From Lasiodiplodia sp. COLG20 (Eukaryota > Ascomycota > Dothideomycetes > Botryosphaeriales > Botryosphaeriaceae): a DNA stretch of 64,000 nt. Of this stretch, positions 8,641-40,421 are shown in pieces. Both the position numbers and the translations under genes were made by a program. How positions within the stretch are numbered: the stretch's first letter is position 1; the number at the start of each line of letters is the position of its first letter. The notes under the pieces are model-generated. The model was not told where the DNA came from, searched no databases, and saw nothing but the letters and a program-made list of their open reading frames with translations. Location: NCBI GenBank assembly GCA_009801085.1, contig VNWV01000028.1, positions 1 to 64,000 on the forward strand, written 5' to 3'.

Positions 8641-9176
8641 TCATTCGAACTTCTACTTCTCGTTGCAGATTTCTTCATTGTAGTAAATAATAAAAAAAAT
8701 AATTGTTTAATTTTAGAGCTGGAGTTTATTTTAAAATTTTAAATCTTGTACAATTTTGCTAGCGAAGGCACACGTGTAATAAATGCAGTAAGATTAGCTA
8801 TACACGCTTTTATTTTTAGTATTTATAATTAGAGTGCTCCATTTCCGTATTTCGCATAAAATATTGCTTCGTTCGCTTTCATGTACTAATCCAATTTTGC
8901 AAATGCTGGATTTGAAAAACAGGAATACATGAATGACCGGTTCAAAAATTTTCATCTTTGTTTTGCCTACGCATAGACTTAGCTCCAACTACACGTGTGC
9001 TGCATTTGTGGTCAACTCCACGCAATTCTTGATGAGGGCACAAATGCACTGTTCCAGGATCTCCTTAATGCATTACGTGAAGATATTGGCGTGTTTCTCG
9101 TAGCACCTGGTAAGAAACAGGCTTCGTGCCTTTAGGCGTCGTAGAAGTTTCCTATGCCAAGGCTGCTCTCGAAGAT
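8641..9176. other. Transition from repeat DNA to gene space; no gene called
   Basis: Base composition returns to normal here. A short open plus-strand stretch at about 8980-9107 (ending in LREDIGVFLVAP) could be an upstream exon of the ankyrin gene, but it has no in-frame ATG and no intron of normal size would join it, so I did not include it. Confidence 0.4.
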
Positions 9177-12100: not shown

Positions 12101-15100
12101 CGGGGAGGAACTTGACCGGGTTCGGATGAAGTCATTGCTGCATGCCGCAAGTCAGGGGCACCAAGAAGTGGTTGCTGCGATTCTCGACTCTGAGACAGAG
12201 GTTGATACCGACTCATTTCTCGCCGCGTTCAGGAATGCTTGCACAGCTGGCAGGGTGGATATGGTAAATGAGCTCATTGCCAGAGATTCCAGAGGTATGA
12301 TTCAGCCACTACATCTTGATCAGGGCGCTCGAATCGCTGCCTGTAGAGGATTCAAGCACACTTTCGAAACGCTTCTTGATCAGCGGAAGCTGGAAAGTGC
12401 GGATGAAACCATTGATAACTGCCTGATACTGGCGGCTGGCAACGGGATGCAAGAACTTACGAACTTCCTGTTTAACACGATTCAGGATGAGGAACGTCGC
12501 ATATACGCAGCCACGAGAGGACTCAGGATGGCGGCTCATAACGGCCACCATGACATAGTCGGCTATCTTCTGGATAGGGGAGCACGCATCAATGATGCCG
12601 TGCCAGATATCAGTATTCCACCGACCTACTGTTGGGAAAAAGAGAAAGCAGGGAAGTCGGCCGAGATGACCGCACTACAAGCCTGTATCAACGGCTTCCG
12701 TCGTCTCCATTATTCAACTTTGAGGGAGTGGGAGAAGGGAGACGAGGCTGCAATGACAATCACGCTCCGTCTCTTACTTGATCGCGGTGCCGACGGAAAC
12801 GCGAAGGGCGGGGCGGACCATCTCCCCATACAGAATGCCCTACGGAATTGTCCCACTAACGTCGTAAGACTGATCATCGAGGCTGGGGTGGACGTTGCAG
12901 CTGCTGCCGCTTCAAACAGCGACCTGCTCGAAGTGCTTACCAGCCGCGATTGCGAATTGGACTGCGGGATCAGATTTCAAATTTTGCTCAATACCGGTGC
13001 ACAGCTACAACGAATCCCGTCACTTGTCAAAGAAGCCCTCAAATATTTTGACGGGGACATTGACTCGGAGAATTACCACTGCGATGGTACTAGTCCGGAT
13101 GGTCGATTCGAACGTACCAAGTCTATCATAGTCGCTTTGACAGAGGGGCCCGGAGCAATCATCAAGACAGCACTTCAAATACTGCCCGAAGAGAAGGCTA
13201 CCGATCGCAGATACGGTCTCGTCCTTCAAATGGCTGCTGCCATCGGGGACTTAGCCTTCGTCCAGCTCCTCCTTGAACGCGGCGCCGATGTGAACACGGC
13301 AGGCTTTTACTATGGTACCGCCCTACAAGCAGCGTCCCGTTTCGGCCATCTCTCAACGATAAAGCTCATTCTCTCCGCGGGCGCAACGGTCAACATCCTC
13401 CAGGGCCGACACCACACAGCACTTCGCGCCGCTGTAGTTGGTGGAAGCATCGATATTGTCCAACTCCTGTTAGAAGCCGGCGCCGATGTAAACCTCTCGT
13501 TCACGACACCCCGACTTTGGAGTTACGAGAAAAACATGGCACCCACAATTATGCAGCTTGCGGTCGAGCATGGGCACCTCGAAATTGCCAAGTTGCTGCT
13601 CCGCAATGGAGCACCACCGCACCGCGACGAGCCTCAAGGGCCAAATACACTCATTCTCGCCTGCTTCGAGAACAACACGGCCATGGTATCGCTCCTACTC
13701 TCGGCTGGGGCGCCCGTAAACTACGTTGCCACACCGCCTTCAAGAATCTCGTACGGTTCCGGAGACGGATGGTGCAGCGCGCTTCACATGGCGTGCATGC
13801 AGGGCAACGCGGATACTGTTCAGCTCCTCCTCGATGCTGGCGCCGACGTCGAGATGAGTGCTGTTGACAGCAAGCGGCGGTCGCCACTCGCCACGGCGGC
13901 GGGCAAGAATCGAGCAACCGTCATCCGGAAACTACTGGCTGCAGGAGCCCATGCAGATGGGCTATCATACTACCATGGCGACAAGGGTAGGACGGCGCTA
14001 TTCGAGGCCGCCGCCGAGGGTTCGTTGGACGCCGCCAAGGCTCTTCTCGCTGGTGGCGCTGCGCCACACAACGAAGAGCGGTGGCCGAATCCACTCAGCG
14101 GTGCATGCAGGTGCGGGAAGTTAGAAGTGGTAGAGCTTCTGTTGGAGGCAGTGAGCTTCTCCGAGCTTGAAGAGCCGGCACTGCTGTGCGCGATGGATGC
14201 GGCATCTGAAGCGTGGTGTCACCAGGATGAGGTATTCAAGCTGCTGTTCGAGTACGCGCCTGCAGATGGTGACGCGCTCGTTGCAGCGGCAGCGGCTGGG
14301 CTAAACTCGGTCGTGTGGATGTTGCTGGAGAGCGGCGTCAACGTCAACTCTGCGAATCTGGCTGGTGACACAGCCCTCCTGGAGGCTGCCTACAACTTGC
14401 ACCCTGATGTTGTGGCTACACTTCTGGAGCACGGCGCGGATATCAAGATCAAAAACAAGCATCGCGGCGGGCCAATCATGTCTGTGTTGGATAAGTGCCT
14501 GGGGCGTCCGAACACAATGTTGAGGGTCATGTTCAACGGGTACAACAACCGCGGGGGCCACTTTTACACGCTGCAAGAGTACAGCCCGTATAACTGGGAA
14601 GGTGGTGCAGATTTGCCAGTCGGAGAAGAGATTGTAAACCTCTTGCTCCAGCATGGCGCGGAAGCTGGTGACCAAAGCCCAGTTCTGGACAACGGCTTCA
14701 CCCTGGGCTCTGCACTGCACCTCGCCGCCTTCCTCGGGAGTGAGGCAATTGTCTCGTCACTGCTAGGTCATGGCGCCGCCATTGATATGCGCAGCGGACA
14801 TTTTGAAACGCCTCTTTTTGCCGCCATCCAAAGCAGCCAAGCTGTCGTGGTGAAGTGTCTACTGGGACGAGGCGCCGCGTACCAGTACATGTCAGAGAAG
14901 CGGGGCACTCCTCTCCATTTCGCCTGCCACCAGCAGTCAAAGCCTATAGTGCGACTTCTGCTGAGACACGGTGCTGATGCCAACACTGTTGACAGCCACG
15001 GCGCGACCCCCCTCACGACTGCTCTGCGCACCACGGGCCCCAGCGACCGCCAATGCTTCAATGTCTTCTTGGAAGAGGCGCGAGATGTGCGAATCACGCC

Positions 15101-16013
15101 TGATGACCTGCTTGCTGCGGCCGCCACTGAATCCGACCCGCTAGGCAAGTTGAAGGCGCTCCTCAATATTGACACAGCCATCACCCCATCCGAGGACGTC
15201 ATCTGCGCTATGCTGGCCAACTGGCGCGTATCGCGCGACCAAGACCTGATCCGCCTGGTCATCTCCCGCACCCGCCATGTCGGTGTTACTGAGCGTATGC
15301 TGTGTACGGTATCAGATACCAGCGCGCTAAAGATACTTCTCGAGGAGGGCGATAGCGCCATGTCCGCCATCAGGCCCGCAGTGCTCGAAGCCGCGACGGT
15401 CCTGCACAACATCGACTACCTCCTCTGGATTGCCCCAACTGTGGTTCCCACCGGGCCTGTTGTGATCAATGCTCTCAAGGCCTACAAACCCTCGCGAGGA
15501 TACGAGCCTCTCAAGCACACCCAGCCGCTGCTCGAAGTCATCTGGCACCGCAGCCCGGATCTCGTCGTGACCGAGGAGATGCTGCTCCACGTCAGCACGG
15601 CCGACGATATGGCATTCCTGATGGGTCGCGCGCCGCCAGATCTGACCGTGTCGGACGAAGTCTTCCAGAAGGCGGTTCTACGCCTCGACCGCGCCAACGT
15701 GTTGCGCGTCATCTTCTCACACCGCCCAGCGTGGCAGATGAGCGAGGCAGCCGCCGTCAAGGGCCTGGCCAAATGCTTTGGTGAGTCCGAGTTGGAGTTT
15801 TGGGATATCCTGCTGGAGTATCAGCCTGACCTCGACATCACTGCCGCCCTTCTGCGCGAGACGAAGCTTACAGAGAAATGGGTACAGCTGGTCAAAAGCT
15901 GGGGGAGGACGTTTGTCGTGACGGAAGAGCTGAGAGAGGTCGTCGACGCGAAGCTGGCGAGTACAAGTCAAACGAAACTGAAGGCGATGGTATATTCGAT
16001 TGGTGAGCTGTAG
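9177..16013 (+). CDS. Giant ankyrin-repeat protein with degenerate NACHT-like domain
   Basis: Intronless frame of 2,278 codons from the first in-frame ATG at 9177; the frame is open upstream to at least 9126 without an ATG, so the true N-terminus may lie in an unseen exon. Residues about 1-350 are not recognised. About 345-560 resembles a STAND/NACHT ATPase: a Walker-B-like VTILLD at about 463-468, but the expected P-loop (GxxGxGKS) is replaced by GQDDGTDG at about 359, with no Lys-Ser/Thr, so nucleotide binding is doubtful. From about 660 to 1950 there are at least twenty ankyrin repeats (TPLxxAxxxGHxxxVxxLLxxGA) with a Gly-Ser linker near 765. The last 330 residues hold shorter degenerate repeats beginning V/I-T-x-E/D. 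NLR-like ankyrin proteins of this plan are common in fungi and are linked to non-self recognition; that role is inference here. Confidence 0.85.
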   Translation: MVRDAWGAKSRQQPVPHTSISSVDASGMISLRAASYLLTFINFPSGTMEQTDMSRSSNPPFPPKYLWQHAIDNADDDVKAALDLAKTGKRDVLQAVRKTADDKREQAVWKFWQFEPPRQGTVILREIVIVRDLLEKIVRWIDVLHGSDAKIPKECQTAWRLLWSPFWFLLRRPVEDVEAFGSLIYDLEYAARLIVEFELMDLQRPGLLNSTENPPTNALALLYDGILRLLASHIRTAVHECTDHPGSEEAVSRAREETTARETKLNLSLGLDTNKTLTPNRQMYARECHRATVQKVTVSHDLRHQILTWITGETEDSSSHNSHYNAPRTSILAVDHLSGLKSFGSWWGSSSPCFLLMHGQDDGTDGICNIVREMIFQTNAQLERPAPVFYVDCAGKSSGHDILKQIVAELAFEAEDPSKTWDSVIAEYHVKQTQAEMERTTVPPMSVPGCLAAILDIIAPGPVTILLDQIGEEAATHVQNYMTHVIDNSVNVVKILITVKNSTPENFGFRTVLAHRFTEHTNGVLVLLRNAQPPRYPTGAESWLTTGSCLSSASPSEQSDALLAAVKGRGLSTLISLVRNTPGILTHLPNSVLTTAVLNNDARFLSYLLTIPQCATDPSALASAFRVAVLTNLIRCTALLLSHQPAAPDPNARFSNAMPSMSTPLLVAASRNHARLIHLLVAHGADVNLFAASDRHLTPLFVAASAGAMDAVQALLAAGADGDGTPAEEAAVAAADAGHEAVSKLLVDHVAEMRRAGRKKQPAVGGSGSGSGFRRRITIYKSLLRNASPGWPVRERGRPDYGEIVTATVEPAVEAEDDAVQRLVRMAGGGDLAGVEKAVKAKVQRNSRESRGNMLAALAAAGQLEAVRTIMEQRELLDISGRQVGQALEEAARAGQLRFVQLFYESGLDLRDRFYSSALRGSVRNGHIDVVDFLVRQKRSEEMPQKTMDDIIVWACQNGDTMALRVLRLAEERFSGEELDRVRMKSLLHAASQGHQEVVAAILDSETEVDTDSFLAAFRNACTAGRVDMVNELIARDSRGMIQPLHLDQGARIAACRGFKHTFETLLDQRKLESADETIDNCLILAAGNGMQELTNFLFNTIQDEERRIYAATRGLRMAAHNGHHDIVGYLLDRGARINDAVPDISIPPTYCWEKEKAGKSAEMTALQACINGFRRLHYSTLREWEKGDEAAMTITLRLLLDRGADGNAKGGADHLPIQNALRNCPTNVVRLIIEAGVDVAAAAASNSDLLEVLTSRDCELDCGIRFQILLNTGAQLQRIPSLVKEALKYFDGDIDSENYHCDGTSPDGRFERTKSIIVALTEGPGAIIKTALQILPEEKATDRRYGLVLQMAAAIGDLAFVQLLLERGADVNTAGFYYGTALQAASRFGHLSTIKLILSAGATVNILQGRHHTALRAAVVGGSIDIVQLLLEAGADVNLSFTTPRLWSYEKNMAPTIMQLAVEHGHLEIAKLLLRNGAPPHRDEPQGPNTLILACFENNTAMVSLLLSAGAPVNYVATPPSRISYGSGDGWCSALHMACMQGNADTVQLLLDAGADVEMSAVDSKRRSPLATAAGKNRATVIRKLLAAGAHADGLSYYHGDKGRTALFEAAAEGSLDAAKALLAGGAAPHNEERWPNPLSGACRCGKLEVVELLLEAVSFSELEEPALLCAMDAASEAWCHQDEVFKLLFEYAPADGDALVAAAAAGLNSVVWMLLESGVNVNSANLAGDTALLEAAYNLHPDVVATLLEHGADIKIKNKHRGGPIMSVLDKCLGRPNTMLRVMFNGYNNRGGHFYTLQEYSPYNWEGGADLPVGEEIVNLLLQHGAEAGDQSPVLDNGFTLGSALHLAAFLGSEAIVSSLLGHGAAIDMRSGHFETPLFAAIQSSQAVVVKCLLGRGAAYQYMSEKRGTPLHFACHQQSKPIVRLLLRHGADANTVDSHGATPLTTALRTTGPSDRQCFNVFLEEARDVRITPDDLLAAAATESDPLGKLKALLNIDTAITPSEDVICAMLANWRVSRDQDLIRLVISRTRHVGVTERMLCTVSDTSALKILLEEGDSAMSAIRPAVLEAATVLHNIDYLLWIAPTVVPTGPVVINALKAYKPSRGYEPLKHTQPLLEVIWHRSPDLVVTEEMLLHVSTADDMAFLMGRAPPDLTVSDEVFQKAVLRLDRANVLRVIFSHRPAWQMSEAAAVKGLAKCFGESELEFWDILLEYQPDLDITAALLRETKLTEKWVQLVKSWGRTFVVTEELREVVDAKLASTSQTKLKAMVYSIGEL

Positions 16014-22902: not shown

Positions 22903-25900
22903 ATGAATCTGGTTCCTGACAACATCTCAATTTAAGCTGCAACACAGCCACCGTCCCACAAGAGTGATAAATCTGGTCTGGAGTACCGAGTACAGGGCAT
23001 ACCAAAGGCGTATGATAAGGAAAGAGTGCCTGAATTAGTTTCAAAAGCGTTGAGTCTTCCACCGGACACCGCCGTGAAAGTTGCCTCTGTGGCACTTGAC
23101 CCATACACACGACGGCATAAGGTGGCGACTGTATCGTTTTCCAGGACCCCAGAGTGTTTGACTTCAACTCTAGGGGATCCCGAAAACGAATGGACCTTTG
23201 AGGCTTCCAGCAGCAGCGAACATAATGAGCCACTAAGGATTTCTGTGGATACCCACTTTCGAGGTTTCACTCCACTGAACTCAGGGAGTGACACTGAGTG
23301 TGAAACGGAGTAAGTCTAAATGGTCCTTCCTATAATTATACGGTTAATTAATACTTTCCGTCATTTAAAAAGTATTATTGCAGTGACTGGGTTAGGAGGA
23401 CACGCGTTCGGTTCCTTCAAGCAAAGTGGAGGAAGTCACATGTGGCTTCGCGACAGCTTGCCGAATGATGTACCTAACGCAAGGGTTTTGATCTTTGGCT
23501 ACGACTCGGCCCTTACGGACCCAAACTCATTCCAAAATCTACGGGATTTGGGGATTACATTTCAAAGAGATATCAACAATATACGGCACTACCAACTTCC
23601 CAGTGTAGGTAATAGTAGCAAACGGTTAGTACAAAAGGCTAACAAGAAATAGGAAACTGAATGGGATCAAGCGTTCAATCCAACACGGCCAATAATCCTC
23701 ATCGGACACAGTCTCGGTGGCATCGTTATTAAGCAGGTCTGAGCACACAGAGAATGATGCAATTAGTAAAACAACAAGAATATTGGGCTGATTCTCATCA
23801 GGCTCTCCTCGAACTGAAGATGCAGTCAAACAATCTATCATCCCAGGTCAACCTCAGTGCGATACGTGGCCTGATTTTCTTTGGCGTACCAACATATGGC
23901 ATGAACATCCAGTCTCTTATACCAATTGTAGGCGACCAACCCAATCGGAGCCTGCTTCAGTCACTAGAAAAAGACTCCATGTTTCTCCAGGAACAGAACG
24001 ACCGTTTTCACAAAGAGCTTAATGGCTACGAACTTAACATCGCCTATTTCTATGAAACAAGAATGTCACCCACCGCTCAACGGGTATTAAAATTTCACGC
24101 TCTGTATCTGTCAATTTACTGATAAAGTACAACAGTCTCCTAGCAATAAATGGTGCATGAGCGGCCCTCCCGCCATTCTTGTAGACAAGGCCTCGGCAAC
24201 CAATGGATATAAGAGTCACAGCCACCCTCATGACTTAAGAGGACTCGTCAGCCATTCTGAACCAATGGACCGGACTCACTCTGAACTCGTGAAATACCGA
24301 CAGCACGATAGGGACTATAGAACAGTTTGTCATCTCATCTGTACGCTGCTAGCGTCAATTCCTGAAGGTGCGTTAGGTCTCATAGACAACAAGTTAGTAT
24401 TTTGCAAGACACTTACCAGCGTTCAGATGATTTGGAGTTGGAGATGCAAGAAAAGATGCAAGAAAGGCTAGATGGTAAGCGACTTATATTGTACCATCGG
24501 GGATGTGAGTCTGATGTTCATTATTGCCAGCCTGCTTGAGATCTTTAGCCTTCCCGGAAATGCAGTCCCGCAGGATGGAGATCGAAACGGCCGAAAATAC
24601 ATGCAGTTGGCTTCTTCAAGACAAACGATACCAAGCCTGGTCAGAACAAGACCAAGGCCTTCTTTGGATCACCGGAAAACCAGGTGCCGGAAAGTCGACG
24701 TTGATGAAGTTTGCCGTGTCATATGCTGAGGCTGCTTCATCTCGTTACGATCGGGATAAGCCCTCATCCTGTGTAGGTGAGGATGGTTCAGGAAACCGCT
24801 CTATTGGAGAAGATGTTGTACTTTGTTTCTTCTTCTTCGGACAAGGTACTTCACTTCAGAAGTCACCGATGGGCTTTCTACGTGCAATTCTGCACCAAGC
24901 TCTCCCGCGATATCGCCAAAAACTGTCAGAGCTTTCTAACACGTTCGAAAGCCGCTGTGCCAGCCAAGGAACCCCGGATAAAGACTGGTATTGGCATGAA
25001 AAAGAGCTCGAACAACATTTGTTTGAATTGCTTGAAGATGCCACACAATCCGATTCCATCCAACTTTTTGTTGATGCGCTTGACGAGTGTGGAGAAGAAG
25101 ATGCTCTCAGACTGGTTGATTTGTTCGAGCGTCTGATGAAACGGATTCTTCAGAATCAGGGCAGACTTAAAATCCTCTTTTCGTGTCGGAAATACCCCAT
25201 TCTCCACTTGGAGAACGGCACCGAGATTGTACCAGAAGAAAGCAATCAGGACGACATCAAGAAAGTTGTTTTCCGCATTCTTCAGAAAGGTCAATTCTTA
25301 GAGGCAAGAGCGCGAGAAATAGGCGAAGCGATTGTAGAAAACTCGAGCGGAGTATTCCTATGGGCTGTCCTAGTGGCTCCACAGGTTGTCGATATGAATC
25401 GCAAGGGGAAACCCATTGCGGCTATCAAACTCGGCATCAAGAAAATTCCACGGGAGTTGCACGAACTCTACAAGAGGATACTGCTGAACTCAGCAATGGA
25501 GGAAGATGACTTTCTCTGCTCTTTGAAACTCTTCCAATGGGTCTGCTTCACTGAAAGAAGACTGTCAGTCCCGGAGATGCAGCACGCCATGGCCTTGGAT
25601 CCGGACACCCAGTACAAATCGGTTGATGAGTACGTCGAGGGGCCTGACATGGCAGAAGACGAAAGCAAGATGGCGAGGATGATCAACTACCTGTCGAAAG
25701 GGCTGGTTGAAGTAAGGGGCAACCATGTTCAAGTGATTCACCAGTCAGTCCATGACTTCCTTGTTAACGAAGCGCTGTACATGATCCTTCAGAGAGTTGG
25801 AAGACCTGCATCTAGTGCTTCTGGTCTGGGCCACCTCATGATTCTTCGAACATGTCTGCAGTACCTGTCTCTTAGAGAGATTGCGAACTTGAAAGAAGAC

Positions 25901-26992
25901 TTTGCTGGAGAAAATCTTGCATCTTTCCCTTTCGAAGTCAAGTATCCACTTTTGGGGTATTCAACCACATACTGGATCCCCCATGCTTCACATGTTGAGT
26001 CTGCCGGTCTGGCAAATGAGGAGCTCTTGCAATACCTCTACAGGACCTTCAATGCTCATAACTGGGAGAACTGGTTATGGGTTCACCGCGAACTGCACAA
26101 AGAACAGGGCATCGAAAGGGGTCATTTTCCAGAATCGACGCTACTACACATTGCCGCAAGCTTCGACCTGCCGTACCTGTTTTCTGCGCTCATGAAAACA
26201 TCGGACAACGACATGAACTGTACAGACTCTGAAGGCCAAACACCACTATGGTGCGCAGTCTCCTCACAGGACAAACGGAGAGTTGCTACTCTAGTCCAAG
26301 ACAAGCGCGTCAACCCAAATTTGGCAAACAAAAGGGGCGAATCTCCGCTCCACGTTGCTGCACAGTGCAGCAACATTTTGACCACGTTACTAGCCTCGGA
26401 CAGGCTCTTGATGAATGCAAAAGACGAGCAAGGTCGGACGCCAATCTTCTTTGCACGCAACCACCCCGAATCCCTGAAAATCTTCTTATCTATGAAAGAA
26501 ATCGACTGGAATGCTCAAGACGATTTGGGGCGCACTCTACTTTGGTGGATTGCACATGATCAGAATGTTGAAGCTATCAAGATCATCCTTGATCGGTCAG
26601 ATCCGAACCTTGGAGATGCGAATGGTGTCACGCCTCTATTCCTCGCCTGTTGGAAAGGCTATGCTGCGGTGGTTGCAAGCTTACTTTGCAGTAAGAGCAT
26701 AAGCCCAGATGCGAAGACAATGGCTGGCCGAACGCCATTATGGGCGGCTGTGACATTTTCACGGATTGAGATAGTACGCCTACTACTGGCTACTGGAAGG
26801 GTGAATCCTTCAACTGAGGATATAAATGGATGCTCTCCTTTGCATATCGACCCGGAGCTTACAGCATTATTGCAGCGGGAGGGGAACTTTTCCATCATCT
26901 CACCATTCTCTAAGACGCCGCCACCAAAAAGGCCGAAACCGAAGCGCAGGTATACCCCCCCGAACTGGTCTGGGCAATATTTTGACTTTTGA
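22903..26992 (+). CDS. Alpha/beta-hydrolase-NACHT-ankyrin protein (NLR-like), 5' end damaged
   Basis: Exons: (22903)-23309, 23373-23604, 23653-23736, 23802-24083, 24136-24367, 24427-24474, 24531-26992. Together they give 1,249 codons in one frame. An N-terminal segment (YRVQGIPKAYDKERVPELVS) precedes an esterase/lipase-like fold with VTGLGGHAFGSF and the nucleophile elbow GHSLGG. Then comes a NACHT ATPase: Walker A GKPGAGKST at about 24664-24705 and Walker B LFVDALDE at about 25063-25090, a winged-helix-like region ending near HQSVHDFLVNEAL, and about six ankyrin repeats to the C-terminus. This is the plan of fungal NLR-like proteins proposed to act in heterokaryon incompatibility and self/non-self recognition. 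The oddity is the start: exon 1 has no Met except an ATG at 22903, and that ATG is followed ten codons later by an in-frame TAA (22933-22935). Either a first exon is missing from my model or the copy carries a nonsense mutation. Confidence 0.78.
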
Positions 26993-27879: not shown

Positions 27880-28716
27880 CTAGCAGGCCATGAAGGAGCG
27901 TCTTGAAAGCTTCTCCTTGGTGTCGGCATCCAGCTCCTCGTAAGCGTCAATCATGAATTGACGCTTCACCTTGGAAGTAGCGTCGGTGTCGAGCTCTTCG
28001 TAAGCATCGATCATGAACTGGCGCTTTGCAAGCTTCTCCTTGGTGTCGGCGTCGAGTTCCTCGTAAGCATCGATCATGAATTGGCGCTTGTCCATTGAAG
28101 TGGCGTCAGCATCGAGCTCTTCATAGGCATCAATCATGAACTGGCGCTTGCCGAGCTTCTCCTTGGCGTCGGAATCGAGCTCTTCGTAGGCATCAATCAT
28201 GAATTGGCGTTTCTCCTTGGCGTCGCCCGAATCGAGCTCCTCGTAGGCATCGATCATGAATTGACGCTTCGCAAGCCTCTCTTTGGTGTCATGGTCAAGC
28301 TCCTCGTAGGCATCAATCATAAACTGGCGCTTCGCGAGCTTCTCCTTGGTGTCGGTGTCAAGCTCCTCATAAGCATCGATCATGAACTGGCGCTTCTCCT
28401 TGGTATCGGCGTCGAGCTCCTCGTAAGCGTCAATCATGAATTGGCGCTTCTGCTTGGAGGCAGCGTCGGTGGTGTCGAGCTCTTCGTAGGCATCGATCAT
28501 GAATTGGCGCTTGGCGAGCCTGTCCTTGACGTGGGCGTCCAGGGCCCCGAAGGAGGAGGCAGAGGAGCAGAGAGCGTCACGCTTCTCCCACGGCTCGGGG
28601 GCGTTGAGCTTGGCGAGAGCGCGCTCGAGAGCGGCGCCCTCGAGCTTGGGGGTCGGGGTCGCGGCGGCGGTGGCCAGGAGAACGGCCAGTACGGAGGCGA
28701 TCTGGGTGGTCTTCAT
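27880..28716 (-). CDS. Kex2-processed repeat precursor (candidate dikaritin-type RiPP precursor)
   Basis: Single exon, 278 aa from ATG 28716. Residues 1-20 (MKTTQIASVLAVLLATAAAT) are a signal peptide. From residue 69 the sequence KR-QFMIDAYEELD occurs ten times (cores at 71-81 through 253-263) at an 18-21 residue period, separated by acidic/Lys linkers such as ADTKEKLA. Each core is preceded by KR, a Kex2 site; an eleventh, decayed unit ends the protein (RRSFMAC). The core is identical in all ten copies while its codons vary at silent positions. Fungal RiPP precursors of the ustiloxin, phomopsin and asperipin type have this plan: secretion signal, Kex2-cut repeats, one aromatic residue per core. 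Two UstYa-family genes follow at 29447 and 30937. I infer that the cores are released in the Golgi and oxidatively cyclised, perhaps at the Tyr. Alternative: a repeat-type hydrophobic surface or pheromone-like peptide. Confidence 0.88.
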   Translation of the reverse strand: MKTTQIASVLAVLLATAAATPTPKLEGAALERALAKLNAPEPWEKRDALCSSASSFGALDAHVKDRLAKRQFMIDAYEELDTTDAASKQKRQFMIDAYEELDADTKEKRQFMIDAYEELDTDTKEKLAKRQFMIDAYEELDHDTKERLAKRQFMIDAYEELDSGDAKEKRQFMIDAYEELDSDAKEKLGKRQFMIDAYEELDADATSMDKRQFMIDAYEELDADTKEKLAKRQFMIDAYEELDTDATSKVKRQFMIDAYEELDADTKEKLSRRSFMAC

Positions 28717-28810
28717 GATGAACAGAGGGGGCTTTGAGTAACGATGTCTTTGAGGAGATGGATGAGGGATGTTGAGGCGATGTGGGATATGGTGCCGCTG
28801 ACAAGCTCAC

Positions 28811-28820
28811 TTAAATATAC
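28811..28820 (-). promoter_or_regulatory. TATA-like element of the precursor gene
   Basis: On the minus strand GTATATTTAA lies about 95-104 nt upstream of ATG 28716, a plausible distance for a fungal TATA box. Assigned by sequence and position only. Confidence 0.4.
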
Positions 28821-29446
28821 GCTCTCGATGCTAGACCGAACGGTGAGAGGACGACTCTTCACTCACTCAGTGTTGCCGACCCTGCCGATACTGAAGCTTC
28901 AGGACGGATTGGATACGGGACATGATGGTGCCGCCGGAAACATGAGGTTGACGCCGACATGCGTTGCCCAATCGGTTCTCAACCGGCCGCATCTCAACAA
29001 ACTCGCCCTTGGTTCAGCCGATTGATAACGGTGGGGAGTAAGCGTCGTGGGGGGCCTTAGAAAGACGGAGCTGAAGGATGCTGCACTCTGCTCCCGCGTC
29101 CGAAGAGATCAGCGTGCTAGCAGCGAAGCGAGGTGTAGTCTGGGCGGAGGAATTATCCGCGTAGCATTGCAGCGTAGCAGGTAAGCATCCAGATGTACCA
29201 ATTTACCAATCATGTTTGCTATGTGCAGTATACTCCTGTTGTGTGGGCCCAGTCTTAGCCTGATTCAGTCGGAGACTTGACGTCGGCTACGGAGTAATAG
29301 CAGGAACGCCCGCGGGATTCTTAATGGTCCCGTAGGATTCTTAATCGTCCGGATCCCAGTGGCTGGCGTTGACCCTTGACCTTGAGGTAGAACTTCCTTT
29401 CCTGGTTAGCGTATCTTAGTATAGCGAACAGGCAGAATCCTTCGTT
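28821..29446. other. Divergent intergenic region between precursor and UstYa-like gene
   Basis: The precursor (minus) and the UstYa-like gene (plus) diverge from here, so about 730 bp may hold shared regulatory sites. Near 29310-29345 GGGATTCTTAAT and AGGATTCTTAAT occur as a direct repeat 19 bp apart. No gene seen. Confidence 0.4.
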
Positions 29447-30643
29447 ATGCAGCCAAGTTCAGCGCATGAGTGCACCGTATCTACCGTGTTCTCTCTCTCT
29501 GCCACTGCTATTGCTGCTGTGATCCATACCCGTTTCCTCCCTCCATCACCATTCTTCGACATGCTCCAAGTGCGTGTGGTCTCGTCATGCGCCTCACGGA
29601 TCCCTTGCGGTCCATCCTACCTCGCCGACATCATTCAGGACGGCGGACAGGGCGAGCACTTCATCATCGAAGCCGCGTCTGGCGCCTACCTCTTAGTCCT
29701 CACCAGAACGGACGCCGCGGGGCACTCGCCTTGGTCGACCGACGACGCCCTCAGGTTCTGCACCGATGCCATCCAGCAATCTACGTCGTCAGCCGTCTGC
29801 CTGTTTGAAGACGAAAGCAGCGCGCTAAAGTCGGAAGAGGCCTTCTGCCCCTCGTCCTCCTCCTCCTCCTCCTCCCTCGTTTCATTGCTCAGCATCTCCG
29901 ACCGAGCGGCCGCATCCGTGGGCAGCTGGCCAGCGGGCCTTTCGACCAAGAAGCAGCAAACCTGGACGATCAAGCTACGGCAATACCGCAAAAAGCTTCT
30001 CTGGCTCGTCCTGGCCCTGGTTCTCGTCGCAGCCGTAGCCACGATAGCAGCGCTGCACCGGTCCTCGCCGGCATACTGGCAGCGCTACGACACGCGCGGC
30101 AGCGTCGGGCCCCAGTACCAGCTTCAGTTCGACCACCACAACGTGTCGGCGTGGGCGGCGCGCTACCCTTCGCCCAACGACGCGTGGTTTCTGCGTATCG
30201 ACGACCAGGCCATGGTGCCGCCCGAGCTGGTCGACGCCGACGAGCTGCGCTACCAGCGCTGGTTCCGCGCGCGCTACCCGGAGGCCGACGCGGTGCGCCT
30301 CCGCGGCGACTACCTCCAGGAGGGCTTCCTCAGCGACCCGAGCGCCATCCAGGTGCCCGCCGACCGCGCCTTCCACATGGCTCATTGCGTGCTGGCCGTC
30401 AGGAGGTACTGGCTGGCGAGAGAGGGCGGCCGCCATGTTTGCCCCCGCGACATCGATTACAAGCATATGAAGCACTGCATCGATGCCTTGGACATGTGGG
30501 CCTTCCCCGAGGGGCCGCGTCGGTCTTTGCCTTCGACCATGGGCGGTGGCGCTCACGGTGCTACTGCCGAGGAAGCTGGTATTGCTGTCGACGAGTCGGA
30601 TGATACGAGGCTAGTTTGGCGCACGAAGGTCTGCTTTGACTGA
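29447..30643 (+). CDS. UstYa-family (DUF3328) oxidase-like protein, N-terminally extended
   Basis: Single-exon frame, 398 aa from ATG 29447 (or 360 aa from ATG 29561; context is adequate at both). A Ser run lies at about 136-143, then one membrane helix KKLLWLVLALVLVAAVATIA (about 182-201). The domain after it carries the two family motifs HxxHC: HMAHC at 310-314 and HMKHC at 340-344. In ustiloxin and related pathways such single-pass proteins (UstYa/UstYb) carry out oxidative cyclisation of the released core peptide; the HxxHC pairs are thought to bind metal. Usual members are 220-280 aa with a short cytoplasmic tail; here about 180 residues precede the helix. It diverges from the precursor gene, 730 bp away, which supports a shared pathway. 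Confidence 0.82.
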   Translation: MQPSSAHECTVSTVFSLSATAIAAVIHTRFLPPSPFFDMLQVRVVSSCASRIPCGPSYLADIIQDGGQGEHFIIEAASGAYLLVLTRTDAAGHSPWSTDDALRFCTDAIQQSTSSAVCLFEDESSALKSEEAFCPSSSSSSSSLVSLLSISDRAAASVGSWPAGLSTKKQQTWTIKLRQYRKKLLWLVLALVLVAAVATIAALHRSSPAYWQRYDTRGSVGPQYQLQFDHHNVSAWAARYPSPNDAWFLRIDDQAMVPPELVDADELRYQRWFRARYPEADAVRLRGDYLQEGFLSDPSAIQVPADRAFHMAHCVLAVRRYWLAREGGRHVCPRDIDYKHMKHCIDALDMWAFPEGPRRSLPSTMGGGAHGATAEEAGIAVDESDDTRLVWRTKVCFD

Positions 30644-30936
30644 TGTCTTAGTGAACTAGATAGAAAATTGACATGGCTCATTTTACACCCTTTTAAGATG
30701 CGTGTTGCCGGTGCTCGATAGCTGATTGGTGATGCTGGAGGTTAATTTCGGCAGCTTCTGAGTGCACATGTTACTGTTAGAATCTACTCAGTCATTCCAG
30801 CCCGGCTCGGTCTCCTGCTGGGTGATGCTTTCTTTCGCTGCACAGATTGCAACGGCTACATATGCTAAATGGTCCAGAATTTTATTCTTGAGCAAGCCAT
30901 GTAATATTGAAGCTATTGCTACCTGTCTACACTGCA

Positions 30937-31923
30937 TCAATTCCCGTGTCCTGGAATGTCCCAGTTGCCAGCACCATGCAGAATATGCGACCTCGTCCAC
31001 TCCTTGAGGTCATCAAAGTTCTTGCACACGTGCACGACATTGAAATCCGGCGTCGGGAACTCGTGGCCGGGGAGGCCATCCTCGGTGAGGATGGGCGTCA
31101 TCTCGGCCGAGCACTGCAGCTGCATCCTCAGGATCTCGACGCAGTGGTCCAGGTGCCCGCGGACAACGTGCGGCGGGTGGTCGACGAAAAACGTGTTGTT
31201 GGCGTAGTGGTCCGGATACGTTGCCATGCGCAATACATTCTTTCTTTCTGTCAGCTGCCAACCGTTGCATTCAGAGGGTAGACACACTCACCAAACAGTG
31301 CAATTGATGGAACACTTCTGGATATCCTGCGATCCCCCCTCCCATGGATTCAGGGATTCTGGTCCAGTTGCGCCCCGGGTCCTTTTGCAGTTCCCCGAGC
31401 TTCGATTCCTCGACACGCACGGGGACTCCGCCAACTTGAAGCTTGTCAGTCGGTCGTGTGCCCAACGTTGCAGCCAGCAGACTCACGCATCCACAAATCA
31501 TCCCATGCTTGGTCCACGTCGTCGCCAGCGCCTCTGAACGGCGACTTCCGGTAGAAGCTGCCAGTGATTGTTTGTGCCGAGTATCGAATGAGCGTCTGGG
31601 CAGGAGCTGGAGAGAATATATTTAATTAAGACCAGACGAGGGCCGCCATGAGACTTACACCACGTTGATGACTGCACAGCGCAGCTCTCTTCGTCAGGGT
31701 ACCACGTGCCGGCATCGAAGACGACAACGCTCCAGGCCACAAACGCCAGAAATGAGATGGCCATCTTGTAGGGACTCGGCCTCTGTTTCTTGCCTAGATG
31801 CTGCAATCCCTCGGCCTGGGGCTCTCCTTTCTGCTCCACGTCCACGTCATCTTCGTAGAGCAGGTGATAGGCCGGCTTGAAAGCAGCTTTCATGCGTTCA
31901 GCAGCTCTTTCGAAAGCGGCCAT
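30937..31923 (-). CDS. UstYa-family (DUF3328) oxidase-like protein, canonical
   Basis: Four exons: 31923-31659, 31606-31487, 31434-31292, 31239-30937, separated by three introns of 52 nt each; 276 aa with phases closing. A membrane helix (MAISFLAFVAWSVVVFDAG) spans about 54-72. The lumenal domain has the hallmark ITGSFYRKSPFRG...DQAWDDLW segment, then HQLHC (171-175) and HLDHC (205-209), the two HxxHC motifs of the family, and ends in KEWTRSHILHGAGNW. Length and order match UstYa/UstYb exactly. It converges on the first UstYa-like gene (30643). The pair plus the repeat precursor is the minimal set expected for a dikaritin-type peptide; function by family, substrate by inference from location. 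Confidence 0.92.
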
Positions 31924-32667
31924 GGCGGTCAGAGTGGTGAATGGTATGAGAAGAATGCGTTGTAGTGGATGCAATGGGCCTCTGTTTTCTGCCGAGTCGG
32001 ATATGGGCGCCGCTCGGATGCAAGCACGTCTGGACACACGGGCCAGCGTGCAGCGTTGGGGGTTGTTGTATAATACATGGATGGCACAGCTATCTGCAGG
32101 CTTCGGCTCCTTCGCCCCGTTCCGCTCCCGTGTTTCCCCTTCTCTCCGCCGTGGCGCAATGTAGATCTAGATAAGCGCTATCCAACTGAGCTAGAGAGCG
32201 CCTCAACCGCAGCCAAACCTATGATAAGAGCTGTGCGGGGTTGATTGTGGGGACCGTCTTGCCGACTTGGCATCTTTCTACCCAAATGGGAAGTTCGGGA
32301 AAACGCTCGCTTCATGCTGAATCCTTCGTTCGATGAACTGTCAGAAATGATCATGCTTAGAATCCTACGGTGCAACCTCGAATTTACCCGTCAGCGCGCG
32401 TAGGTCGAGACCCCACTGACAACGCGCGATATGGACTGCCTAACGACGAGGGTTGTGGTACTGTACATGCATGCGGCGGAATAATCATGGAGGTTCGTCG
32501 CCAAACATCGTATGATCTGGACAATTGGATGTTCCGGTCAGCATCAAAGCAGGCGGACGAATTCGGACCAACGGTTGCCTCCTGGCACTGGTCGTCGAAG
32601 TCGGGCATTTCAGTCCCCTCCTCGAACCGCTCCTCTCAGCACAAATTCCAGTTTCACAAACCGAACA
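31924..32667. other. Intergenic between UstYa-like and DOMON genes
   Basis: 744 bp shared by two divergent genes. At 32161-32202 (minus) there is a fragment like the 5' part of a tRNA (TAGCTCAGTTGGATA) without the rest; see rejected items. No gene supported. Confidence 0.4.
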
Positions 32668-34150
32668 ATGCGCCTCCTTAGCGTTTCTATCGTGACGCTT
32701 CTTCTTTCAGCACTTCAGGCAGGTTGCGCTGCGTTCAGCCAACTCTGCAAAGCTGATCAGATCCACGACGTCGATATTTGTATGGTCTTCGCGACGCCTC
32801 AGTATGACCCTTCAACCTATCATCTCGCCTTTTCCGGAAGGTTTCCTCAGGGTCGGGGCTGGGCAGCCTTCGGCCACGGATCCGCCATGGACGAAGCACT
32901 TATGTTTGTATTCTACCCCAACGAGCAAGAAAATGGTATGTCGCCCTTACATTGTCCTCTTTCAAGACTTTAGCTAATCAGAGCAGGGCTCACTGTGAGC
33001 GTCAGATCAACCAGGCCAGTTTGGCACCTCAGCCCGTAACTATAGACAAAGCGCTGACATTTCTCCTTCACAGCGGTCACTACCCTCCGCGCGTGTCCTC
33101 CCAACACAGAAGCCTCTCAGTGTTGCAGACATTTGTAGACAGCGAAGGATACTACAACGCCGAGATCAAGTGCGAGTCTTGCAGAGCATTGGAAAATGAG
33201 CACGACGGGTACGAAAGCTGGATATGGTCTGCCAACGACTATCAGAAATTCCAGACAAGCGAGGTAGACGAACAGCTACAAATGCACGTACTCTACGGTA
33301 AGTCTTAATCTCACGGAATCCATGGACCATGCTGAGTTCCAGCAGACAGATTTGAAACGACCGTCGAAATGTCATCAGGAAGCACTCTCACCCTGGCTGG
33401 AGACAGGATAAGCACAGGCATCAAGGGCCCAGGGTCGAAGGACGCAGTCCTATTCGACCTGATGAAGGCCCACGGCTTCCTCATGCTCCTCGCTTTCCTA
33501 GCAGTCTATCCAGCCGGCGTGCTGGCAATTCTTCATGGAGGCAAGCGGGCCTTTTGGATGCATGCAGGAGCACAATTGAGCGGAACTTCATGCGCCCTCC
33601 TCGCAGGCGCTTTTGCCATCCTTGGGTCTCACGGGCACTCCCATTCTCACGTAAGGCTTCAGTTATACCTGGATTTCCGCACCGCTGATATTCCTTGTAG
33701 GGCCCGCTCATGTTATCCCATCAGGTACTTGGTTTCGCAATTCTGATCTTGATCCTCTGTCAAGGCGGGATTGGATACCTGCACCACAGAATTTTCGTAT
33801 TGACCCAGGAGAAATCGCGTTGGTCGCGATGGCACAGGATTCTGGGCTATGTTGTGCTTCTTTCCGGCTTTTCCAATGCAGCGCTGTAAGTGTCGATGTT
33901 CCGCAGACGTATTGGTCAGGGACTAACTTGGATCAGTGGCCTTTACATCAGGCAGGTATTTGATAATTTTGGCTTTCTCCTTCTTCTAGGCGGCTTAGCT
34001 TGTGGCACTTGGGCAATGGTGGGAAAGATCATTGAGAAGTTTAGTCAAAGTCAAAGACCGGTAAGCTGGTGGAAGAGCGGGGACCCGGCTCGCTACGAAG
34101 CGGGAGAAGCGGATCTTTCGACGCTTCAAGATAACAGACTACTCCTTTAA
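32668..34150 (+). CDS. Secreted-type DOMON plus cytochrome b561 membrane protein
   Basis: Six exons: 32668-32935, 32987-33035, 33074-33297, 33343-33650, 33701-33885, 33937-34150; 415 aa. The frame closes only if a 38-nt intron (33036-33073, GTAACT..GCTGAC..CACAG) is removed. Signal peptide MRLLSVSIVTLLLSALQAG; then a cellobiose-dehydrogenase-cytochrome-like DOMON domain (about 25-175) with GWAAFGHGSAMDEALM carrying the probable haem Met; then a b561 core with five or six helices and four His candidates for two haems (KAHG His224, MHAG, SHQV, WHRI). Such proteins move electrons across a membrane and in fungi are paired with ferric reductase or extracellular oxidase functions. It might supply redox power to the neighbouring oxidases, but that is speculation. 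Confidence 0.87.
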
Positions 34151-37437: not shown

Positions 37438-39036
37438 TTAAATTAGCGGTTCCAGCGCACCTCTACCGCTAATTTTCACCTCAGGAATCTGCTGGACTAG
37501 GCTTTTCCATTCCCCCAGCTCCTTTGCGTCAACCCAGTTACCATGGATCTGTGCCTTGACATGGAGAGGTAGCTGCACGATGGCAACGGCCTTCTCGAAC
37601 TCGCGTGTATCAATGATAACCAAGTCATTTCTGTTCTCTTTTCGCCTTTCAACCATGGCCATTATCCATCCATCTCCCTCGGCGGCCTCGTCACTTCTCG
37701 GAATGAAAATGGGTTCTTGAATCAATGACTCGTCACCCGCGTAGAAGAAATGGGTCTTTCCTGTCTCGTGGTTGTGCATTGCGAGGGCGTTTAGTCCGTG
37801 GAAGATATTCTTCCCACCGTCGCTTCGCTCCGGCAAGAATACATCCGCCCAAAAAATCTTCAACTTCTTCGCCATAAATCTCTCGTCGATACGCGGGAAC
37901 TCGGACGGCATGTCCAGAATGATTTGCGGATCCGGTACTTGTGTGTTGGTGGGCTTGCTGAGGTCGAGCTCCCAGCGAACAAAGTCGGCCTTTGCATCGA
38001 CAGCAGGCATGCGTCCATCGACGGGCGGGAAGAATGGGAAAGCATTGTCGTGGACACGGCTGGATTCAAAGAACAGCCTGGTGCTACCGTCCTGCTCGAC
38101 CTCCTCCCAGGCGCCGCCAGTATGGATGAGCATGCAGTTCCTCCAGTGGTATGTCCTCGTCTCTCCTTTGGCCCAGCCCGGGGGCATCTTCCCTCCCACT
38201 CTCCGCGGCACCACAATGAACGTAGCTGGCCTGTCGTAGCTCCACGCCCAGTGCTGCTTCCCCCTCTTCATCCTCTCCACGTCGGTCTCGAACGGCCACA
38301 GCACCAGAATGACCCAGTTGTCCGTAATGGCACAGTCGTGAATGGGCGCGCACCACGGACTCTCGAGCCAGACGACGCTATCCTTGACCACATCACCCGC
38401 CTGATCCAATGCATACACCACCACATCCTTCGTCGCCAACCCCTTCGCCTCGTACGCAAACACCACCAGCTCCTTCTTCTCCGGATCGACCCTGGGATGA
38501 GCGGTAAACGTCTTCGCCTTGACCGCGCCCTCCCTGGCGCCAAACGGATCGTACCCGCGCGTCGCCAGCGTATCCGGATCCAAGCTGTACGGCAGCGCGA
38601 CCTCCTTGAGCGCCAGCAGCTCGCCCGCCCACAGCACCAAGTTCGTGTTGGCGGTGCTGTCGACGGCGGCGCGCACGCAGGGGTGGTGCGTGAACGGGTT
38701 GCGGTACAGGCCGAACAGCGCCTCGCCGCGCCGGCGTTCGAGCAAGTACCGCTCCGTCTCGACGTACGCCATGCGCATGTCGACGCGGCCCGCCCGCACG
38801 CGGAAGGCGCTGACGCTGCCGTCGCCGTCGATGGGCACGTTGTCCGGGTGCGGCGGCACGAACGGGTCGCACATGACCCGGTAGAAGGTGCCGTCGATTT
38901 CGGGAGGAATCGTGCCTAGCACGGGCAGGTCAGCGATGGCGCCTTCGAGGCGGCAGGGCTGGTTGCTGCCCGCCAGGTCGAGGGCTTGCGGCCATTTGGA
39001 GCTGAGGGTGCTTGTTTCGGTTGTTGTGGCGGACAT
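37438..39036 (-). CDS. Carotenoid-oxygenase-family (RPE65-type) dioxygenase
   Basis: Single exon, 532 aa from ATG 39036. The seven-bladed propeller enzyme family uses four His to hold Fe(II); matching sites are TAHPRVD (His180), IHDCAIT (His233), LIHTGGAWEE (His305) and QIHGNWV (His498). The N-terminal VLGTIPPEIDGTFYRVMCDP and DGDGSVSAFRV are diagnostic. Fungal members cleave either carotenoids or stilbenoid C=C bonds (lignostilbene dioxygenase type); the soluble N-terminus and Tyr/Lys-rich pocket region cannot be assigned by eye, so substrate is open. It has its own TATA box (39081-39092). Downstream neighbours include an aldolase and P450 that could process small aldehydes. Confidence 0.9.
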   Translation of the reverse strand: MSATTTETSTLSSKWPQALDLAGSNQPCRLEGAIADLPVLGTIPPEIDGTFYRVMCDPFVPPHPDNVPIDGDGSVSAFRVRAGRVDMRMAYVETERYLLERRRGEALFGLYRNPFTHHPCVRAAVDSTANTNLVLWAGELLALKEVALPYSLDPDTLATRGYDPFGAREGAVKAKTFTAHPRVDPEKKELVVFAYEAKGLATKDVVVYALDQAGDVVKDSVVWLESPWCAPIHDCAITDNWVILVLWPFETDVERMKRGKQHWAWSYDRPATFIVVPRRVGGKMPPGWAKGETRTYHWRNCMLIHTGGAWEEVEQDGSTRLFFESSRVHDNAFPFFPPVDGRMPAVDAKADFVRWELDLSKPTNTQVPDPQIILDMPSEFPRIDERFMAKKLKIFWADVFLPERSDGGKNIFHGLNALAMHNHETGKTHFFYAGDESLIQEPIFIPRSDEAAEGDGWIMAMVERRKENRNDLVIIDTREFEKAVAIVQLPLHVKAQIHGNWVDAKELGEWKSLVQQIPEVKISGRGALEPLI

Positions 39037-39080
39037 GGTGGTGGTGATGATGATGATAACGGGGAGTGTTTCTTTTGTGC

Positions 39081-39092
39081 TTTTTATATACC
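39081..39092 (-). promoter_or_regulatory. TATA box of the dioxygenase gene
   Basis: Minus-strand GTATATAAAAA lies 45-56 nt before ATG 39036, a strong TATA match at a short distance. Confidence 0.5.
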
Positions 39093-40421
39093 ATTTCAGC
39101 TCGGCGGCAGTCTATGGCAATTCTAATGCCGATGCCGATGGGATGTCAGGCGTTCTTCAATTACAAACATTGAGTGTTGACAGCGGAAAGGTATGTGCAA
39201 TGTATAGATGTGGGGTTAGTCTCGTGATTCGCCCATTATCGTATATACGTACTTTAACAGCTAACCTATTAATCAGGGTGCCGGATCTCGGCGGAAACCT
39301 ACCTACGACACCCCAATCTGCCCGGCGGCAGATGGCGGCAATCCATGTGGGGAACGATGCGGGGACGAGCGTTGTAGTACGGGATGTAGCTCTCGAGGCG
39401 ATGCCGTACTCGTTAGTGCGAGTCAGAATCACCGTGCAGGCCGGGGAGTTATTCGGCCGCGTTAGATACTTAGACGCATCGCATCGCATGGCCGGGTATC
39501 GTCCCCGCAAACGTAGACCACAGCACCGCATTGCCATCTCGCTCTCCTCTGTAATACAGCTTTGCTTGCAGGATGTGGTTTCCGACCAGGAACGTGGCGC
39601 TAAACGTGGCCCGCAATTTTTACTTCCCGAGCATGAGAGATGCGGGCGAGATAGCTATAGTTGGTAGTCAATCGTTTCGTGACACCAAGATGTTTCTTGA
39701 TTCATATCGCCCTTTGTGCAGACTGCACGCTGTTGCGAAACGGGTGATGAGACTAGAGCTGTGGTTGAAAGAAATCACCTGCCCGGCTACCGACTGACAT
39801 GTGTCTTATTATTTCAAAAGCCCTGGAGGTTACTTGCAGATAAAAATTTAATGGAAACTTGAGGTGTTCTCCGCTAGACATGCTCGTAAAGAGCTGCACG
39901 CTCTGCAGGTCCAATGGGCGCGTGGAAACACTACCCAAAGGAAACGTCGCCACTGGAATTCCAGTATGCATATCGTAGGAAGTGGCGGAAAAACCTTGAA
40001 CTGCATGGAAAGGCTCGGCCCCCGCCAGGTAGACTGCGGAGTAGACCAGCTAGAGGGGTTTGTGATAGATTCAGTATGATTTCTTCAGACTAAAGCGGGG
40101 CTTGCGTTGATCCCATGCGGGGCAACACTTGAACACCGCAAAAATTGACATTTTAGAACTGATGATACTGATTGCAGCTCAAAGTTTGAAATGTAACGAT
40201 GGGCATGAGAAACATTACCAGTTTGAGCTTTTAGGGCTGGGAGTGTTTTAAATGCAAGACGCCAACACTTCCCAATTAGGCAAAAGTATGCGCACATAAT
40301 ATGTTCCATCCATACATTGTACAGGATGTATAAATGCCACTTCACTGTTACTTCTCAAACCAATTTCGAACTCTACCGACACCTCACGCACATTTATCAT
40401 CAAAGCGGGAACTACGCCAGG
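39093..40421. other. Intergenic; no gene
   Basis: 1.3 kb between divergent genes. I see no domain-bearing frame. The frame upstream of 40422 is open back to an ATG at 40326, which could extend the aldolase by 32 residues, but the extension is not family-like. Confidence 0.4.

What the first reader, a model, noticed from the sequence alone, without database searches (positions are those of the whole stretch)
27880..31923. Candidate new dikaritin-type RiPP cluster: ten-copy QFMIDAYEELD precursor plus two UstYa-like proteins
A secreted precursor with ten KR-bounded identical cores sits beside two proteins that carry the paired HxxHC motifs of UstYa oxidases (HMAHC/HMKHC and HQLHC/HLDHC). That combination defines ustiloxin-, phomopsin- and asperipin-type peptides. 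The core is unlike those I know (YAIG, YVIPID, FYYTGY types) and has a single Tyr flanked by acidic residues. I infer a cyclic peptide of about 7-11 residues with an oxidative link through Tyr or Ile/Asp side chains.
Basis: partly seen in the sequence, partly recalled or inferred. Interest (0 to 1): 0.88.

Follow-up and report, generated by a model that had tools for sequence, protein, structure and literature searches.

The report
Fungal peptide cassette with electron donor
A Lasiodiplodia-like fungus carries a compact gene set that probably makes a small chemically cross-linked peptide cut ten times out of one precursor; next to it lies a gene that could feed electrons to its two copper enzymes, a partner that researchers have postulated for this enzyme family.

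Summary
A secreted-looking precursor (27880-28716, minus) carries ten identical QFMIDAYEELD cores, each directly after KR; the ten DNA copies differ only at silent positions. Neighbour U2 is a clear UstYa/DUF3328 protein (PF11807 E 1.6e-46). U1 is a divergent relative, below Pfam's cut-off, with paired HxxHC in 34 of 36 family members. This is a dikaritin-type cluster, a known and common kind (1758 of 7878 published KEPs have DUF3328 neighbours); three more KEP-like frames lie near UstYa hits in this genome. The core was not found in the searches made.

Unexpected, outside the given coordinates: a DOMON-cytochrome b561 (CYBDOM) gene at 32668-34150, divergent from U2. Its promoter and that of precursor/U1 each hold two GAATCCTWCG sites, the only four in 64 kb. 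DUF3328 copper enzymes need Cu(I), from a partner that was only postulated (PMC12435403); a plant CYBDOM reduces Cu(II) (PMC10784544). I propose the CYBDOM as that partner. Cyclic product and electron step are inferred. Verdict: new variant of a known kind.

The parts
27880..28716 (-). KEP precursor, 278 aa: signal peptide (by eye), two leader pieces, ten Kex2 units beginning QFMIDAYEELD, C-terminal SRR-SFMAC
28474..28506 (-). core copy 1 of 10 (first in the protein)
28411..28443 (-). core copy 2
28357..28389 (-). core copy 3
28294..28326 (-). core copy 4
28231..28263 (-). core copy 5
28174..28206 (-). core copy 6
28111..28143 (-). core copy 7
28051..28083 (-). core copy 8
27988..28020 (-). 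core copy 9
27928..27960 (-). core copy 10
28717..29560 (.). divergent intergenic region (promoters of precursor and U1) with two GAATCCTWCG sites: 29331-29340 (-), 29435-29444 (+)
29561..30643 (+). U1, divergent UstYa-like protein (360 aa from this ATG; in-frame ATG also at 29447): cytosolic alpha/beta domain, TM helix, luminal domain with HMAHC-x25-HMKHC
   Evidence: the downstream ATG is favoured because most aligned homologues begin near there and a promoter site lies just before 29447 (inference)
31659..31923 (-). U2 (UstYa/DUF3328) exon 1, start codon and TM helix
31487..31606 (-). U2 exon 2
31292..31434 (-). U2 exon 3, holds HQLHC near its end
30937..31239 (-). U2 exon 4, HLDHC and stop; full protein 276 aa, PF11807 159.3 bits
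31924..32667 (.). divergent intergenic region (promoters of U2 and CYBDOM) with two GAATCCTWCG sites: 32319-32328 (+), 32360-32369 (+)
32668..34150 (+). DOMON-cytochrome b561 (CYBDOM) gene, six exons 32668-32935, 32987-33035, 33074-33297, 33346-33650, 33701-33885, 33937-34150; 414 aa; presumed heme ligands M74, H177, H223, H253, H289, H327
   Evidence: exon borders set by hand

Best explanation
A four-gene dikaritin-type RiPP cassette. The precursor enters the secretory pathway and Kex2 cuts after each KR, giving ten QFMIDAYEELD-plus-tail peptides (inferred from sequence). U1 and U2, membrane-anchored enzymes facing the lumen, each with a paired HxxHC dicopper site, oxidise the core, most likely joining the single Tyr to a side-chain beta-carbon in an ether-linked ring (inferred from AprY/UstYa; partner residue unknown). 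Other proteases trim the acidic tail (inferred). The neighbouring CYBDOM protein would carry electrons from cytosolic ascorbate across the same membrane and keep the copper as Cu(I) (inferred). Shown here: the genes, repeats, motifs, conserved residues and shared promoter sites. Confidence: modified KEP product 0.85; macrocycle 0.65; CYBDOM part of the cassette 0.5; CYBDOM as electron donor 0.35.
For: Ten cores identical in protein, all different in DNA. U2 is PF11807 at E 1.6e-46. In U1's family 15 of 36 members match PF11807 at E<=0.1, best 1.2e-5, and 34 of 36 hold the HxxHC pair, spacing 25 in all 34; in the models of U1 and of U2's homologue P0054 the motifs lie on helices. DUF3328 proteins are dicopper, O2-dependent and need Cu(I); an accessory electron-transfer or Cu(I)-delivery protein was postulated (PMC12435403, passages). 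CYBDOM gene model with the expected Met/His residues. The plant CYBDOM HYP1 moves electrons from ascorbate across the membrane and reduces Cu(II) (PMC10784544, passages). GAATCCTWCG: four exact hits in 64 kb, two in each divergent promoter, 0.27 expected, 0 of 100 shuffles reach 4; only 50 of 16,545 control segment pairs share such a two-by-two motif, this pair being one of the 50.
Against: U1 itself is under the PF11807 cut-off (9.8 of 25 bits; 12.4 for the luminal part); profile comparison with U2 is weak (probability 15%; 5% global and 46% local). No precursor homologue was found, so conservation of the precursor beside U1/U2 elsewhere is untested. Of the UstYa hits in this genome none other lies near a CDH-cyt or b561 hit (all lists are lower bounds), so the CYBDOM is not a general partner. 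The promoter motif was found by comparing the two promoters, hence post hoc: a longer form with two mismatches allowed is not clearly enriched (9 in the window, 4.25 expected, 4 of 100 shuffles reach 9), sharing a 12-mer is not rare by itself (185 of 2278 segment pairs), and the 12-base form occurs 21 times in the genome. No expression or chemistry was seen.
Confidence: 0.75

Rival explanations
1. Ordinary KEP/UstYa cluster; the DOMON-b561 gene is an unrelated neighbour and electrons come from a housekeeping source or small molecules.
For: The three other KEP/UstYa loci in this genome have no CDH-cyt hit nearby; ascorbate, NADH or NADPH each boosted CctR in vitro (PMC12435403); adjacency seen in one genome only; looser motif tests are weak.
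Against: Divergent promoter with the same two motif variants as the precursor/U1 promoter; few such genes found in this genome (5 CDH-cyt hits; one more DOMON-b561 found only; lower bounds).
Confidence: 0.5
2. U1/U2 modify the peptide without closing a ring (hydroxylation, halogenation, desaturation).
For: DUF3328 members hydroxylate (CctR) and halogenate (ApnU) (PMC12435403); the core has a single Tyr and an unusual acidic context.
Against: [quoted passage not shown] PMC6514808 passages), and each core here keeps its Tyr.
Confidence: 0.25
3. The precursor gives a linear secreted signal (pheromone-like) and the UstYa-like genes serve something else.
For: Mating-factor KEPs are linear; 6120 of 7878 KEPs (78%) have no DUF3328 neighbour.
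Against: No pheromone domain among the Pfam hits; KEPs annotated as mating factors or pheromones lack DUF3328 neighbours with three exceptions (abstract of PMC7329392); here two are adjacent.
Confidence: 0.08
4. Repeats are a chance or low-complexity artefact.
For: None beyond weak Pfam hits to families of unknown function.
Against: Ten identical 11-mers with silent-only divergence; open frame with leader and Kex2 sites.
Confidence: 0.01

Closest known systems
Asperipin-2a cluster (aprA, aprY, aprT, aprR; Aspergillus flavus)
   Same: KEP precursor plus UstYa-type oxidase, four genes with no tyrosinase listed (PMC6514808 passages)
   Different: Core FYYTGY versus QFMIDAYEELD; one oxidase versus two; no transporter or reductase gene recognised directly beside ours; CYBDOM here
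Ustiloxin B and phomopsin clusters
   Same: Repeated KR-delimited cores and two or more DUF3328 proteins
   Different: Their EDYXI core motif (PMC6339444 passages) is absent; a tyrosinase is essential there and none was found on this contig
KEPs with DUF3328 neighbours (1758 of 7878, Umemura 2020, PMC7329392)
   Same: Fits the criteria of section 13: signal peptide (by eye here), at least 3 repeats of at least 8 aa between dibasic sites; DUF3328 adjacent, Tyr in the core
   Different: Specific core; whether it is in that paper's supplement could not be checked (no supplement look-ups; Diplodia, Botryosphaer-, Lasiodiplodia, Macrophomina, Neofusicoccum and Dothideomycetes are absent from the main text)
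CctR (DUF3328 copper hydroxylase, cyclochlorotine pathway)
   Same: Cytosolic N-terminus, TM helix, luminal helical domain, HxxHC(x)nHxxHC
   Different: U1 has a modelled folded cytosolic domain where CctR's N-terminus is disordered; substrate differs
CYBDOM proteins (HYP1, Arabidopsis)
   Same: DOMON fused to b561; HYP1 shows ascorbate-dependent electron transfer and Cu(II) reduction (PMC10784544 passages)
   Different: Plant plasma-membrane iron homeostasis; the fungal gene lies beside a peptide cluster and its activity is untested

Membership tests
Dikaritin-type RiPP cluster | DUF3328 protein with two HXXHC motifs (DUF3328 suggested as class-defining, PMC12048977 passages) | tested here: met
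   U2: PF11807 159.3 bits, cut-off 25; HQLHC/HLDHC
Dikaritin-type RiPP cluster | Precursor with signal peptide and repeated Kex2-flanked cores | tested here: met
   Ten cores after KR; signal peptide judged by eye, no predictor run
Dikaritin-type RiPP cluster | Precursor within a few genes of DUF3328 (mean 3.09) | tested here: met
   U1 and U2 are the next two genes found
Dikaritin-type RiPP cluster | Oxidatively cyclised product | not testable with these tools
   No chemistry or expression data
Ustiloxin/phomopsin subtype | EDYXI core motif | tested here: not met
   Core is QFMIDAYEELD
Ustiloxin/phomopsin subtype | Tyrosinase in the cluster | tested here: not met
   40 PF00264 hits in the genome, none on C21 (the tool calls its lists lower bounds)
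UstYa (PF11807), for U1 | Curated Pfam score cut-off | tested here: not met
   9.8 bits, 12.4 for the luminal part, cut-off 25; 15 of 36 relatives match at E<=0.1
UstYa (PF11807), for U1 | HxxHC pair on helices after a TM helix | tested here: met
   34 of 36 relatives; helices 307-327 and 338-352, helix 176-203 over the hydrophobic stretch
CYBDOM | DOMON heme domain | tested here: met
   PF16010 50.8 bits, cut-off 27; M74 aligned in four paralogues, H177 in the one that covers it
CYBDOM | b561 domain by Pfam cut-off | tested here: not met
   PF03188 19.4 bits, cut-off 23
CYBDOM | Four transmembrane heme histidines | tested here: met
   H223, H253, H289, H327 align with histidines in L020, L021 and L024, three of three paralogues that cover them; that these are the b561 ligands is recalled
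Fungal alpha-type pheromone precursor | Pheromone Pfam domain | tested here: not met
   no such family among hits at E<=1

The most novel reading that the evidence does not exclude
The CYBDOM gene is the dedicated electron supply of a DUF3328 pathway: cytosolic ascorbate feeds luminal dicopper peptide cyclases through a transmembrane b561-DOMON wire, a fungal counterpart of cytochrome b561 serving the copper enzymes of animal secretory granules (animal comparison recalled). U1, with its extra folded cytosolic domain, would be a separate DUF3328 subfamily tuned to this arrangement.
Probability: 0.33. Interest if true: 0.75.

Novelty: new variant of a known kind. Interest (0 to 1): 0.52.

Why it matters
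It adds a peptide core not found in the searches made, and points to a UstYa-like subfamily that falls largely below Pfam's reach (15 of 36 members match PF11807 at E<=0.1) and so could be missed by domain-based mining. It also names a concrete, testable candidate for the electron donor of the DUF3328 copper enzymes, which the CctR authors postulated without naming a protein. If true, adding a CYBDOM could become a practical way to make these enzymes work in laboratory hosts.

Tried and rejected
Precursor homologues: none at E<=0.01 among the 7998 best-sharing candidates. This is inconclusive, since only proteins of 0.55-1.75 times its length are considered and diverged cores share few words. 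Paralogues in the own genome: only itself. Core in print: (five substrings, full texts, 0 papers); supplements not searchable.

Relatives' DNA: two viral-contig scans gave nothing.

U1/U2 co-divergence over eight taxa: correlation 0.65, Mantel p 0.0015, but several U2 rows are fragments and shared ancestry alone would give this; not used as proof. Low-complexity frames in L018 that the repeat scan listed were dropped by eye.
Full report
Setting. The window is the start of contig C21 of a 43.5 Mb genome in 88 contigs, beginning with telomere-like AACCCT repeats at 4-120. U2 is 97% identical to a Lasiodiplodia theobromae protein, so the fungus is probably a Lasiodiplodia or close kin, a genus of woody-plant pathogens (abstracts in the listing).

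Precursor. The minus-strand gene at 27880-28716 encodes 278 aa. After a hydrophobic start (signal peptide by eye) and two leader pieces come ten units, each KR-QFMIDAYEELD followed by 5 to 8 variable acidic/lysine residues before the next KR (RR after the last), and a short SFMAC end. All ten cores are identical as peptide and all ten differ as DNA: ten variable positions, all third-base and silent, 4.33 differences per pair on about 5 silent sites. Only 15% of random single changes would be silent. Selection has kept all 11 residues. Kex2 would thus release the core with an N-terminal Gln and a tail; tail removal needs other proteases. In two other KEP-like frames of this genome (YAWYNF and YVWASS cores) the core lies at the C-terminal side of the unit, so here the order is the reverse.

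U2. Four exons within 30937-31923 give 276 aa with PF11807 at E 1.6e-46. Its close homologue P0054 was modelled in its place, with the HxxHC motifs on helices 168-182 and 199-220 (mean pLDDT 76).

U1. A single-exon gene; homologues favour the start at 29561 (360 aa), with an in-frame ATG at 29447. It is under the Pfam cut-off. The protein search gave 53 hits, in Diplodia, Apiospora, Xylaria, Daldinia, Parastagonospora and others, two of them 98% identical and so probably the same gene in close kin. I aligned 36 sequences, U1 and 35 of the 53. 34 of 36 have HxxHC-x25-HxxHC; P0015 and P0017 each lack one histidine of it. 15 of 36 match PF11807 at E<=0.1, best 1.2e-5. Direct profile comparison with the U2 alignment is weak but aligns the two motifs. 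The model (mean pLDDT 78.7) shows a confident cytosolic alpha/beta domain at about 41-160, a helix at 176-203 over the hydrophobic stretch and a luminal domain with the motifs on helices 307-327 and 338-352. This matches the layout described for CctR except for the folded cytosolic domain. U1 has no paralogue in the genome at E<=0.1. I treat U1 as working like a UstYa protein and as a probable, divergent member.

Pairing. Among the 12 closest of 25 U2 hits (P0054-P0065), 7 are listed with a contig length equal to that of a U1 hit: Diplodia seriata, Apiospora (two), Biscogniauxia, Xylaria (two), Daldinia. Where numbered tags exist (four cases) they are consecutive. None of the 13 more distant U2 hits pairs this way, and 46 of 53 U1 hits are unpaired, many of them on short contigs. 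The pair spans Botryosphaeriales and Xylariales (orders recalled).

Fourth gene. Divergent from U2, six exons at 32668-34150 encode 414 aa: signal peptide by eye, DOMON domain (PF16010, 50.8 bits), b561 domain (PF03188, 19.4 bits, under the cut-off of 23). M74 aligns with Met in four paralogues, H177 with His in the one that covers it, and the four transmembrane histidines with His in three of three. The genome search lists five CDH-cyt hits and two PF03188 hits (which misses the window's own gene); a further DOMON-b561 at C1:2018800 came only with the protein search. None except the window's lies near a listed UstYa hit. All these lists are lower bounds.

Shared promoter motif. GAATCCTWCG occurs four times in 64 kb, two in the precursor/U1 intergenic region and two in the U2/CYBDOM one, with one T-form and one A-form in each; 0.27 expected, and 0 of 100 shuffles reach 4. 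The motif came from comparing these two regions (two shared 12-mers, four shared 11-mers against 0.25 in shuffles), so the fair control is how often two 800-base segments share any such two-by-two, one-degenerate 10-mer: 50 of 16,545 pairs, including this pair (186 segments of the window and ten fetched loci, those over the precursor and pairs within one fetched locus left out). Against it: the 13-base form with two mismatches gives 9 hits where 4.25 are expected, and sharing some 12-mer happens in 185 of 2278 segment pairs. In the whole genome the 12-base form occurs 21 times against 6 for the reversed control; three are here.

Mechanism. From passages of PMC12435403: DUF3328 enzymes hold two coppers at HxxHC pairs, need O2 and Cu(I), face an organelle lumen, and an accessory electron-transfer or Cu(I)-delivery protein was postulated. 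From passages of PMC10784544: the plant CYBDOM HYP1 moves electrons from cytosolic ascorbate, by the authors' model through three b-hemes, and reduces Cu(II). A full-text search for papers holding two or more of UstYa, DUF3328, cytochrome b561 and dikaritin gave 15, 14 listed, none of the 14 with cytochrome b561. Hence the proposal that the CYBDOM feeds U1/U2. It is an inference from position, promoter and chemistry; no other genome was checked for the adjacency.

How ordinary. Umemura (PMC7329392; abstract and sections 6, 7, 13 read) found 7878 KEPs, 1758 with DUF3328 neighbours. In ten other UstYa regions fetched here, three hold further KEP-like frames: C34:9587-10333 (YVWASS; signal peptide by eye), C1:4098248-4099684 (VDDQKYAWYNF, 11 copies of YAWYNF), C36:89162-89686 (seven KVKVD units, no Tyr in the core). 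For the last two no signal peptide was established. So the cluster type is known; the core, the U1 subfamily and the CYBDOM make it a variant.

Noticed in passing
L025 and L010, G000:C34:9587-10333 (minus): Second KEP in the genome, ten near-identical units (nine with YVWASS, one YVWAST), about 3 kb from a group of three UstYa hits (C34:13567-17679).
   Followed up: partly
L013, G000:C1:4098248-4099684 (minus): KEP-like frame, 11 copies of YAWYNF directly before KR, about 3 kb from a UstYa hit at C1:4102873; start and signal peptide not established.
   Followed up: partly
L015, G000:C36:89162-89686 (minus): KEP-like frame with seven KVKVD units and no Tyr in the core, about 2 kb from a UstYa hit at C36:86929; signal peptide not established.
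   Followed up: partly
32155-32205: By eye, on minus, a stretch resembling the 5' half of a tRNA gene (GCGCTCTCTAGCTCAGTTGGATAGCGC) in the U2/CYBDOM intergenic region; ARAGORN and Rfam report nothing there.
   Followed up: partly
9114-16010: Stop-free frame of 2299 aa full of ankyrin repeats near the telomere.
   Followed up: no
24515-26989: Protein with an NPHP3_N (NACHT-like) domain and ankyrin repeats, possible fungal NLR-type gene.
   Followed up: no
37441-39111: RPE65-family (carotenoid oxygenase-type) gene on minus.
   Followed up: no
48045-50095: Copper amine oxidase on minus, 14 kb beyond the CYBDOM gene.
   Followed up: no
[not shown]
   Followed up: partly
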